Of a DNA stretch of 49,226 bases, positions 8,013 to 31,010 are shown piece by piece. Numbering within the stretch: the stretch's first letter is position 1; every line of letters begins with the position of its first letter. This DNA comes from Apilactobacillus micheneri (lineage in GTDB: Bacteria; Bacillota; Bacilli; Lactobacillales; Lactobacillaceae): positions 1 to 49,226 of the forward strand of contig NZ_POSO01000005.1 in assembly GCF_002993975.1 (NCBI RefSeq). Direction: 5' to 3'. The position numbers and the translations under genes are program-made. The notes beneath the pieces were generated by a model that saw only the letters and a list, made by a program, of their open reading frames with translations, was not told where the DNA came from and made no database searches.

Positions 8013-8776
8013 TGAGTAAAGTATTCGCAGACTTGGCTAAATATCAAGGCAGTTCACCTGCTTTTTTTAGTGCTTTAAAATCATCATATAATTGCCAAGG
8101 AGCAATCGTACAATTAACTTACGGTAATTACCCCACATATGATAATTATCAAGCGCCATATCAAGTTTTCAATGGATATAAAACTTTTGGTGTAATTAGT
8201 GCATATCATTTCTACATGGGCAACCCAGTAGCTGAAGCTAACTACTTTTTAAAACATGTTAAGCAATGCGGATTAGATAAATCTACACTACTAGCTATTG
8301 ATGTAGAAGACTGCTCACTAAGCGATAATCTTACTACACAAACTAATCAATTTTTAGATGTGTTATATAATGCTGGTTATCATAACTTAGCAGTCTACTC
8401 AATGGAGTCATGGTTTGGATCTAAAATTATGGTTAATAAATTGCATCATAGCCCTAAGATTTGGGTAGCCAATATCAGTTATGAACCAAAAATGAAATAT
8501 GATGCATGGCAATATACTTGGACTGGTCATGCTGGTGGTAGTGATGTTGATTTAAGCTTAGACAAAACTGGTCACTTTACCAGTGCAGAAAAGCCCAAGC
8601 AAGCTACCTACTGGCAGAAAGGCAAACTCTTTGAATCTAAATCCATGCTTAACACATACTCTGACATACACTTAAAGAGAAAGCGTGAGCCTAGATTTGG
8701 AGCTAAGTCATGCTTCTACGCCGATATGGTGAAAGATGGTAAGGTTACAAGATTAAAAACTCATCTGGCTACGTGA
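8012..8776 (+). CDS. Endolysin, GH25 muramidase (C-terminus frameshifted)
   Basis: Glycoside hydrolase family 25 lysozyme cutting the glycan backbone of peptidoglycan. Catalytic hallmarks: D7 in FADLAKYQG, and the D97-x-E99 pair in LLAIDVED. DAWQYTW and DVDLSL close the barrel. A C-terminal SH3-like wall-binding region follows (from ~residue 205). The frame stops at 8776, but at the A5 tract 8755-8759 one extra A restores a natural end (KNSSGYVSANTDFSRRIK) to 8811, giving 266 aa. The gene is essential for lysis, so an assembly error is more likely than a real mutation. Confidence 0.9.
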   Translation: MSKVFADLAKYQGSSPAFFSALKSSYNCQGAIVQLTYGNYPTYDNYQAPYQVFNGYKTFGVISAYHFYMGNPVAEANYFLKHVKQCGLDKSTLLAIDVEDCSLSDNLTTQTNQFLDVLYNAGYHNLAVYSMESWFGSKIMVNKLHHSPKIWVANISYEPKMKYDAWQYTWTGHAGGSDVDLSLDKTGHFTSAEKPKQATYWQKGKLFESKSMLNTYSDIHLKRKREPRFGAKSCFYADMVKDGKVTRLKTHLAT

Positions 8777-8819
8777 GTGCCAATACTGACTTCTCACGCC
8801 GAATTAAATAATATTTAGA

Positions 8820-8856
8820 CCTACTGACCTATGCGTTGGTAGGCCTTTTTATTTTT
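8820..8856 (+). terminator. Intrinsic terminator after lysis cassette
   Basis: CCTAC and GTAGG pair across a 14-base loop, followed by CCTTTTTATTTTT. It closes the late transcript just before the small-RNA-like array. Confidence 0.65.
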
Positions 8857-8859
8857 CTC

Positions 8860-9040
8860 TTGAAAATAAATAATTTCTGCATATAATAAAAAACGTATTG
8901 ATATGAATTCAATACACAAGGTGGATAATGCACGTTTTCTCGTTTGGTGTGAAAATATATTATTTTGAGTCACTCATTATAATGTCCTTCTTTGTAAATA
9001 CTTAATCACAAAACAGGATATAAATTATCCTGTTTTTATT
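8860..9040 (+). ncRNA. Small transcription unit 1 (promoter, 5' hairpin, terminator)
   Basis: A consensus promoter (TTGAAA 8860-8865, 16-base spacer, TATAAT 8882-8887) is followed at the expected start by a hairpin (GTATTGA/TCAATAC, 8895-8915) and ends in a clean intrinsic terminator (ACAGGATA/TATCCTGT with TTTTT, 9012-9037). The predicted RNA is about 145 nt. It contains a possible 25-codon frame at 8928-9005 (MHVFSFGVKIYY..., hydrophobic) with AAGGTGG only 3 bases upstream, so it may be an sRNA or a small-peptide mRNA. Confidence 0.55.
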
Positions 9041-9042
9041 TG

Positions 9043-9163
9043 TTGAAATTCTGTACCTTTTGCATATAATAATATTTGTAGCAAATTGCTACATCTGATG
9101 CCTTTGATGAAGTATTCACGATTTTATATTTACTGAGTAGTCACAAATGTGGCTACTTTTTTA
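9043..9163 (+). ncRNA. Small transcription unit 2
   Basis: Promoter TTGAAA 9043-9048, spacer 16, TATAAT 9065-9070. At the start site lies a hairpin TGTAGC/GCTACA. It ends with AGTAGTCACA/TGTGGCTACT plus TTTTTT (9136-9162). The predicted RNA is about 85 nt with no convincing ORF. Confidence 0.55.
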
Positions 9164-9285
9164 TTGCATCTAAAGATATTTTGCAATATAATTTTATTGT
9201 ACTTTAAAAAGTACAACGTGCTTAAAATACCTCTATAACTATAAAGTCAATACATTGGGCGGTCACAAAAGTGACCGCTTTTTTA
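9164..9285 (+). ncRNA. Small transcription unit 3
   Basis: Promoter TTGCAT 9164-9169, spacer 17, TATAAT 9187-9192. It has a perfect 8-bp 5' hairpin TTGTACTT/AAGTACAA (9197-9216) and a perfect 8-bp terminator GCGGTCAC/GTGACCGC with TTTTTT (9259-9284). The predicted RNA is about 85 nt. The terminator loop region resembles that of unit 2 (GTCACAAA). Confidence 0.55.
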
Positions 9286-9288
9286 TTA

Positions 9289-9390
9289 ATGAAATCATCA
9301 TTAGAATGTTATATAATAATAAGTGCCTTTCGCTGGGCATAATAAAATCAAAGACCTTAGAGTAGGCATTAAGTTGCTTGCTCTTTTTAT
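9289..9390 (+). ncRNA. Small transcription unit 4
   Basis: ATGAAA 9289-9294 (a 4/6 match to -35), spacer 17, TATAAT 9312-9317. There is a 5' hairpin TGCC/GGCA (9324-9339) and a 9-bp terminator stem with G-U pairs (9360-9383) followed by TTTTT. The predicted RNA is about 65 nt. Confidence 0.5.
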
Positions 9391-9394
9391 ATAC

Positions 9395-9428
9395 AAAAAA
9401 CGCCACTAAATTAATAGTGACGTTCTTA
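9395..9428 (-). terminator. Minus-strand intrinsic terminator
   Basis: Read on the minus strand, AACG-CACTA and TAGTG-CGTT pair, followed by TTTTTTG. It faces a possible short minus transcript starting near 9460 and insulates the sRNA-like units from the toxin-like locus. Confidence 0.5.
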
Positions 9429-9485
9429 TATGTCGAAACGCTTAAGCATCTTGCTTTTCCGTTTAATTAAATTGTATCATATTTG

Positions 9486-9645
9486 TTGATATAATTATTG
9501 AATAAATATATAATGATATTGAATTAAAAAAAGAAGCCCTGCTTCAACAGGACTTCCAAGTAGAGCCGTTAAAAGCGGTGGCATATTTTAAATACTAAAA
9601 AAGCTGTATTCAACCTGCCAAAGTTGAGGATACGGCTTTTTTATT
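9486..9645 (+). ncRNA. Small transcription unit 5: candidate antitoxin RNA
   Basis: Strong promoter TTGATA 9486-9491, spacer 17, TATAAT 9509-9514. A CCTG/CAGG hairpin near the 5' end has a CTTCAA loop. The end is a bidirectional terminator (AGCTGTAT-CAAC paired to GTTG-GATACGGCT, 9602-9638) with T-runs on both strands. It converges with the minus-strand peptide gene, whose stop codon and terminator it overlaps. The layout recalls RNA II of par/fst type I systems (inference). Confidence 0.5.
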
Positions 9646-9775
9646 TTGTCTTTTTGTTCTGTTTGATTACAGAAATCAATCTTGAAATAGCATTGATGCA
9701 ATAAGCTAACGCTTTTAATAGCGCAACAATTGCAAAAATAACCGTAACAATTGACAAAACTGCAAATCCTTTCAT
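9641..9775 (-). CDS. Small hydrophobic peptide, candidate type I toxin
   Basis: The peptide has 44 residues. One membrane helix (AVLSIVTVIFAIVALLKALA) is followed by an amphipathic part and a basic tail (KQNKKTK), the build of membrane-acting type I toxins such as Fst/Ldr/TxpA. Its own promoter on the minus strand is TTGTTT (9883-9888), spacer 16, TATAAT (9861-9866). The ~75-nt leader holds AAAGAGGTGG placed for an ATG that is followed at once by stop codons. The toxin ATG itself has no ribosome binding site, which suggests coupled or structure-controlled translation. It is not a close match to Fst that I can recognise. Confidence 0.5.
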   Translation of the reverse strand: MKGFAVLSIVTVIFAIVALLKALAYCINAISRLISVIKQNKKTK

Positions 9776-9860
9776 GAGAGTCTAAATGATGATTTATTAC
9801 ACCATAACAACCACCTCTTTCAAGAGATTTGCCACCGCATTCAACTTCTCCACAAAAATT

Positions 9861-9888
9861 ATTATACAGGAATATTTATATAAAACAA
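9861..9888 (-). promoter_or_regulatory. Promoter of the small peptide gene
   Basis: On the minus strand TTGTTT and TATAAT are separated by 16 bases. The predicted start is near 9853, about 78 bases before the peptide ATG. The leader contains GCGGTGGCA (complement at 9830-9838), which also occurs in unit 5 (9575-9583). Confidence 0.5.
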
Positions 9889-9890
9889 TT

Positions 9891-9988
9891 TGTTATACTA
9901 GACATGCATGTAAACATGCACTTCTGGTAATTCTGGCTTTTAAGCCTGAATAAAGGCCTACTGCTCATTTGAGTGGTAGGCCTTTTTT
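9891..9988 (+). ncRNA. Small transcription unit 6
   Basis: An extended -10 (TG-T-TATACT, 9891-9899) without a clear -35 is followed by hairpins GCATG/CATGC (9906-9919) and GGCTT/AAGCC. The end is a long terminator (GGCCTAC-CTC/GAG-GTAGGCC with TTTTTT, 9955-9988). The predicted RNA is about 80 nt. The same stem also ends the minus-strand rep-abiH transcript. Confidence 0.4.
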
Positions 9989-10724
9989 ATTTAGTTGAAT
10001 CATTAAAACATTTTTTTGCAGAGTCATATGAATCAAATGAATTAACATATTCATATGAATTATAGTTCTTTATTTTTTTAAACAAATATATTTGTGATTG
10101 CTTAATTGATAAATTGTTATCTGGAATAGCAATAAACAAATCAACATTTTTATCAAATTTATATTCCTTTTTGTCTATTATAAACCAAAATTTCTTAAAA
10201 GGGATATTATCAATTTTTTCATATCTGTTTGTTATTCCCATTCTATAAATAGATGAAAAAATATATATTATTAAGAATAAATATAGACACAAGCTAAAAA
10301 CATTATTAGAAAAAACATTTTTTATTGAATTAGTACTTATAGCAATGCAGAAGCTTATTCCCAATATATAATCTAAAATAACTTTAAAAAGTATTTTTGC
10401 TTTTTTATTAAATGTAAACAATGAAAAATTATATTTACTTATATTAACTGTTTTATTTTTCTTTTTTCTTTTTAACACTCCAAATAATATTGCAGCTACA
10501 GTTAAAATACCATAAACATTGCTTAATGCTAAAGTGATTAATAGTGAAGGAGCTTTAAAGGAATCAATTATTTTATTATTCATATCAATTTTAAAATATC
10601 CAAATAATTTTAAAATGAGTTCACAAATTGTAAAAAGGAAAAACCAAGTATAAATACCCAAATCCGTTCTTTTTATATAATTATAAAAATTATCCTTAAA
10701 TTTATCACTTATAAAAATATTCAT
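9987..10724 (-). CDS. Four-TM membrane protein, partner of AbiH-like gene
   Basis: A 245-aa protein with about four membrane helices (near residues 24-43, 60-83, 112-130, 140-160) and a soluble C-terminal ~80 residues. I do not recognise a family. Its ribosome binding site GAGGAG overlaps the restored stop codon of the AbiH-like gene, so the two are one operon with coupled translation. Pairing with an Abi protein suggests a membrane effector or superinfection-exclusion component (inference). The extreme AT content is like its neighbour and unlike the structural genes, which suggests recent acquisition. Confidence 0.7.
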   Translation of the reverse strand: MNIFISDKFKDNFYNYIKRTDLGIYTWFFLFTICELILKLFGYFKIDMNNKIIDSFKAPSLLITLALSNVYGILTVAAILFGVLKRKKKNKTVNISKYNFSLFTFNKKAKILFKVILDYILGISFCIAISTNSIKNVFSNNVFSLCLYLFLIIYIFSSIYRMGITNRYEKIDNIPFKKFWFIIDKKEYKFDKNVDLFIAIPDNNLSIKQSQIYLFKKIKNYNSYEYVNSFDSYDSAKKCFNDSTK

Positions 10725-30939: not shown

Positions 30940-31010
30940 GCACAATTCGCCAAGTGGAAAGGCATGGGACTGCAAATCCTTAATCATCGGTTCGATTTCG
31001 ATATTGTGCT
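30940..31010 (+). tRNA. tRNA-Cys (GCA)
   Basis: Full cloverleaf: acceptor GCACAAT/ATTGTGC (7 pairs), D-arm GCC/GGC, anticodon loop CTGCAAA (anticodon GCA), T-arm ATCGG-TTCGATT-TCGAT. The discriminator base is U73, the known identity base of tRNA-Cys. CCA is not encoded. The lower anticodon-stem pair is imperfect. Placed just before the terminase genes; it may support translation of Cys codons or be a former attachment site. Confidence 0.85.

What the first reader, a model, noticed from the sequence alone, without database searches (positions are those of the whole stretch)
8857..9988. Tandem array of short promoter-hairpin-terminator units: possible phage sRNA cluster
Between endolysin and the rep-abiH operon there are ~1.1 kb with no normal gene but up to six + strand units of the same design: a sigma-70 promoter, a hairpin at the start site, 40-110 nt of other sequence, then an intrinsic terminator. 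Units 1, 2, 3 and 5 have near-consensus promoters with 16-17 base spacers; units 4 and 6 are weaker. Units 2 and 3 share GTCACAAA in the terminator loop. Such regularity is unlikely to arise by chance and suggests a bank of small regulatory RNAs, sponges or short-peptide messages made from the resident plasmid-prophage.
Basis: partly seen in the sequence, partly recalled or inferred. Interest (0 to 1): 0.85.

Follow-up and report, generated by a model that had tools for sequence, protein, structure and literature searches.

The report
Phage-plasmid small-RNA cluster around toxin-antitoxin
Just after its lysis gene, a virus-plasmid hybrid from a Lactobacillus-type bacterium appears to carry a row of tiny RNA genes; one is the RNA antidote of a small toxin that probably helps keep the element in its host, and some neighbours recur beside the same antidote on related elements, with unknown targets.

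Summary
The array is real, but it is not six equal units. Joint promoter-hairpin-terminator units number 5 on the + strand of the region, against a mean of 0.05 in 300 shuffles. Unit 5 is a known thing: Rfam RatA (73 bits), the RNA antitoxin of a type I toxin-antitoxin pair. A second missed gene is a short - strand RNA (about 9464-9398). This RNA, RatA, the toxin gene and unit 6 keep order and strands on a sister phage-plasmid (G010:C16) and on a plasmid-like contig (G009:C7); unit 4 is shared with G010:C16 only. Units 2 and 3 have no relatives found. Unit 1's start resembles the leader of a protein gene in another genus, so it may be a message or a relic. Best reading: a moron-like slot of small-RNA genes around a RatA-type module. 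Companion targets are unknown; an 18-nt antisense match of unit 4's linker to a host pre-tRNA spacer is a lead within chance. I had no transcript data.

The parts
8860..9040 (+). Unit 1: promoter 8860-8887, predicted RNA about 8894-9040; hairpin 8895-8915; ORF 8928-9005 (25 codons) behind AAGGTGG
   Evidence: start resembles the leader of a protein gene in G018 (82% over about 48 nt, E 3.1e-5); no match at E 1e-5 in 397 family genomes beyond itself
9043..9163 (+). Unit 2: promoter 9043-9070, predicted RNA about 9077-9163, hairpin 9077-9093, terminator 9135-9158
   Evidence: no relatives found
9187..9285 (+). Unit 3: -10 at 9187-9192 (poor -35), predicted RNA about 9199-9285, hairpin from 9197, terminator 9257-9280
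   Evidence: no relatives found
9289..9389 (+). Unit 4: promoter 9289-9317, predicted RNA about 9323-9389, unpaired linker about 9341-9358, terminator 9359-9384
   Evidence: conserved in G010:C16 with identical start and linker
9398..9476 (-). - strand RNA, predicted start about 9464, extended -10 TACAAT (9476-9471), terminator ending about 9398; divergent from RatA
   Evidence: copies in G010:C16 and G009:C7, weak candidate in G010:C14
9486..9645 (+). Unit 5: RatA antitoxin RNA, promoter 9486-9514, predicted RNA about 9521-9645
   Evidence: Rfam RF01776 at 9511-9601, 73.4 bits, gathering score 49
9596..9643 (.). Two-way terminator shared by RatA and the toxin mRNA
   Evidence: inverted repeat I9, folded
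9644..9866 (-). Toxin gene: -10 at 9866-9861, predicted start about 9854, ORF 9775-9644 (44 codons, or 38 from a TTG at 9757)
   Evidence: 79% DNA copy on contig C3, dS 0.60 and dN 0.15
9894..9987 (+). Unit 6: extended -10 at 9894-9899, predicted RNA about 9906-9987, hairpin GCATG...CATGC, linker ACTTCTGGTAATTC, terminator 9952-9985
   Evidence: copies in G010:C16 and G009:C7

Best explanation
The 1.1 kb between the GH25 lysozyme and the replication side of a phage-plasmid of the Apilactobacillus group is an accessory (moron-like) slot holding separately transcribed small-RNA genes. Its core is a RatA-type type I toxin-antitoxin module: unit 5 plus a - strand toxin gene. [quoted passage not shown] if the element is lost, the short-lived antitoxin disappears first and the toxin message is translated, which favours cells that keep the element. 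Around it sit companion RNAs (unit 4, the - strand RNA, unit 6), each with its own promoter and terminator, a 5' hairpin at or near the start that probably protects it from 5' nucleases, and a short unpaired linker that is the likely pairing part; they are best taken as trans-acting small RNAs expressed from the resident element. Units 2 and 3 have the same build but no relatives. Unit 1 may instead be a short message. Shown: anatomy, the RatA match, the toxin ORF under purifying selection, conserved order of the block. Inferred: transcription, toxicity, pairing, and every role of the companion RNAs.
For: RatA match over the gathering score. RF01776 also at 18 places in 7 of 16 genus genomes, 14 of 18 over the cut-off. 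Convergent toxin ORF with dN/dS about 0.25. 46-nt overlap of the two RNAs with the ends I set. Unit excess over shuffles, fold z-scores -3.0 to -7.2. Unit 6, toxin, RatA and the - strand RNA in the same order and strands in G010:C16 and G009:C7; unit 4 also in G010:C16. Unit 4's start hairpin and linker are identical in both copies while two terminator positions change and keep pairing.
Against: No transcript data. The window's own toxin peptide matches no Pfam or NCBIfam family over cut-off and no plasmid record, and rli28 (toxin mRNA) is not called in the window. Units 2 and 3 have no relatives, so nothing shows that they are kept. Unit 1's start looks like a protein gene's leader. No target in the element beat shuffles. 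The - strand RNA model beyond its three founders mostly meets what look like ordinary terminators. Most lysozyme loci of the genus lack such a row.
Confidence: 0.62

Rival explanations
1. Some units, unit 1 first, are leftovers of protein morons: promoter, leader and terminator remain, the reading frame is lost or shrunk, and the RNA itself does nothing.
For: In G018 (another genus) a stretch 82% alike over about 48 nt (-10, GTATTGATATGAAT, GTGGATAATG) leads into a long reading frame. In G010:C16 small protein genes stand where units 1-3 stand here. No relatives of units 2 and 3.
Against: The G018 match is E 3.1e-5 in one of 60 genomes, in AT-rich DNA. Units 4, 5, 6 and the - strand RNA are conserved as short RNAs. 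Strict start hairpins at 3 of 7 TATAAT sites on the + strand inside against 7 of 101 outside.
Confidence: 0.17
2. Unit 1 is a short-peptide message (25 aa, MHVFS...), possibly an orphan toxin-like gene.
For: SD-like AAGGTGG five or so bases before the ATG; predicted pairing of that site with a downstream stretch; leader-like similarity in G018.
Against: No family match; no relative of the peptide known; one such ORF in 150 nt is not surprising.
Confidence: 0.12
3. The hairpins are DNA elements: an attachment site, replication origin or operators.
For: An 18-nt identity to a tRNA-cluster spacer lies here, and attP often lies after the lysis genes (recalled).
Against: No integrase among 29 window ORFs scanned (10 with Pfam, 20 with PHROGs, one in both). 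The start hairpins share no common sequence. RatA is an RNA family.
Confidence: 0.05

Closest known systems
txpA/RatA type I toxin-antitoxin systems (Rfam RF01776; toxin mRNA family rli28 RF01492; Pfam Hol_Tox PF16935)
   Same: RatA RNA over the gathering score, convergent small hydrophobic peptide gene, overlap at the 3' ends; txpA/RatA pair at the 3' ends and depend on RNase III (PMC6562991, passages)
   Different: The window's peptide matches no family over cut-off although sister copies are Hol_Tox; flanked by companion RNAs
Fst/Lpt (par) type I toxin-antitoxin of lactobacillus plasmids
   Same: Plasmid-borne, convergent RNAs, small hydrophobic peptide (PMC5608710, passages)
   Different: There the two RNAs share complementary repeats; here the repeat is in the same sense in both RNAs
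Prophage-borne small RNAs and type I systems of Staphylococcus aureus (SprG1/SprF1)
   Same: RNA genes and a type I system on a prophage (PMC10579593, abstract start in the listing)
   Different: Different RNA families (by Rfam, names none of them here); here a row in one slot of a phage-plasmid
Phage morons and RepA/ParA phage-plasmids
   Same: Separately transcribed inserts in a variable slot; phage-plasmids with repA next to parA are reported in A. kunkeei (PMC9648514, passages); moron concept recalled
   Different: Most inserts here look like RNA genes rather than protein genes

Membership tests
RatA / txpA-type I toxin-antitoxin | Antitoxin RNA matches the RatA covariance model | tested here: met
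   9511-9601, 73.4 bits against a gathering score of 49
RatA / txpA-type I toxin-antitoxin | Convergent gene for a small hydrophobic peptide, kept as a protein | tested here: met
   ORF 9775-9644 on the - strand; dS 0.60, dN 0.15 over 44 codons against the C3 copy
RatA / txpA-type I toxin-antitoxin | Toxin belongs to a known type I toxin family | tested here: not met
   Window peptide: no Pfam family, NCBIfam only TIGR04561 below cut-off. Peptides of G010:C16 and C3:41 kb match Hol_Tox
RatA / txpA-type I toxin-antitoxin | RNAs overlap and can pair at their 3' ends | tested here: met
   46 nt of overlap with the ends I set, -78.5 kcal/mol; the ends are predicted, not mapped
RatA / txpA-type I toxin-antitoxin | Toxicity relieved by the RNA | not testable with these tools
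   needs expression tests
Fst/par type I toxin-antitoxin | Repeats that make the two RNAs complementary outside the terminator | tested here: not met
   The 27-nt repeat is inverted in the DNA, so same-sense in the RNAs
Phage-plasmid | Phage structural and lysis genes with plasmid replication and partition genes | tested here: met
   RepA C-terminal domain, ParA, terminase, portal, head, tape measure, baseplate, holin, GH25
Phage-plasmid | Stable extrachromosomal circle | tested here: inconclusive
   The window is a whole contig, circularity not shown; the A. apisilvae relative is a circular record
Trans-acting small RNA (units 1-4, 6, - strand RNA) | Expressed short RNA that pairs with a target | not testable with these tools
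   No transcript data; 61 gene starts of the element gave nothing beyond shuffles

The most novel reading that the evidence does not exclude
The RatA module of these elements is part of a multi-RNA island: the divergent - strand RNA and unit 6 (three elements) and unit 4 (two elements) travel with it between phage-plasmids and plasmid-like contigs and widen a toxin-antitoxin pair into a small regulatory network. In the boldest form, unit 4 pairs through its unpaired linker (18 nt, perfect) with the spacer between tRNA-Met and tRNA-Ser in the host's tRNA transcript, so that an RNA of the element acts on a pre-tRNA or is soaked up by it.
Probability: 0.12. Interest if true: 0.82.

Novelty: new variant of a known kind. 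Interest (0 to 1): 0.46.

Why it matters
If true, it gives a compact, defined set of phage-plasmid RNAs, with a recognisable toxin-antitoxin core and conserved companions, that can be tested for roles in lysogeny, maintenance of the element and control of host genes in Lactobacillaceae of bees and flowers. It also suggests that moron slots can be filled by RNA genes as well as protein genes.

Tried and rejected
Copies of one unit: rejected; only promoters 1/2 (74% over 38 nt) and terminators 2/3 (85% over 26 nt) look alike, and the lysozyme's terminator resembles unit 6's (72% over 39 nt).

Fst/par membership of unit 5: rejected, no complementary repeats.

Targets inside the element: six linkers against 61 gene starts; 6 to 92 of 100 shuffles were as good. 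Pairwise duplex energies were not calibrated; only the RatA-toxin one is used.

tRNA spacer match: exact 18-mer, but BLAST E 0.065 in the own genome. My estimate is 0.31 expected exact 18-mers for the 621-nt query, 0.02 for the linkers of units 2, 3 and 4. Kept as a lead.

Model R1 of the - strand RNA over 16 genomes: matches at E 1 in all 16, but below the three founders (99-128 bits) the best are 40 bits. Of three such looked at I keep only G010:C14, for its shared TTCGACAT and its place after the lysozyme; its score is no better than the two I drop.

DNA relatives: the 8700-10100 stretch matches 221 plasmid records (the 20 rows shown match the lysozyme or the RatA/toxin/downstream part; 201 rows not seen) and no phage record. 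Units 1-4 with the - strand RNA: best E 0.05 in 11 plasmid records and 0.2 in 35 phage records, taken as chance. IMG/VR exact patterns of unit 4 and the - strand RNA found only the window's own record.

On re-checking I found a match that I had passed over (G018, unit 1's start, E 3.1e-5), read it, and lowered unit 1's standing as a small RNA.

Full report
Where it is. The window is a whole 49,226-base contig (C2) of a 1.46 Mb genome and equals in length an IMG/VR record whose lysozyme is 100% identical. The top plasmid match of 8700-10100 is p1unnamed of Apilactobacillus apisilvae, at the lysozyme, a circular 42.7 kb record with a broadly similar gene order. Of 29 window ORFs scanned (10 with Pfam, 20 with PHROGs, one in both; most small ORFs not scanned), matches include RepA C-terminal domain, ParA, anti-repressor, RecT, terminase, portal, major head, tape measure, baseplate, holin and GH25; none is an integrase. 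Phage-plasmids with repA next to parA are reported in A. kunkeei (PMC9648514, 12 of 15 passages seen; its main text has no 'small RNA' or 'toxin-antitoxin').

Noticed in passing
window 9560-9587 (+) and 9854-9827 (-): RatA and the leader of the toxin mRNA share a 27-nt same-sense repeat (GTAGAGCCGTTAAAAGCGGTGGC against GTGGAGAAGTTGAATGCGGTGGC), 78% alike; similar by eye in other copies. A third partner might bind both.
   Followed up: partly
window about 9805-9797 (-): Behind a good SD (AGAGGTGG) the toxin leader has a tiny frame ATG GTG TAA about 20 nt before the toxin's ATG; the C3 copy has it too.
   Followed up: no
   Followed up: partly
L006 2729-2803 and 2841-3890: The A. apisilvae phage-plasmid has an Rfam RT-18 RNA just before a gene annotated RNA-directed DNA polymerase, between tail and lysis genes.
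   Followed up: no
L056 1041-1058; window 9339-9356: 18-nt identity between unit 4's linker and a spacer in the host tRNA cluster, antisense to the tRNA transcript.
   Followed up: partly
window 30940-31010 (+): A tRNA-Cys gene (GCA) in the element.
   Followed up: no
L010 1736-1876 and 1900-2025: Two very small hydrophobic protein frames stand where units 1-3 stand in the window; the 46-aa one has no family match over cut-off.
   Followed up: partly
L059 14896-15756: A 286-codon frame beside the sister's module looks MazF-like by eye; NCBIfam MazF only at E 0.016, far below cut-off.
   Followed up: partly
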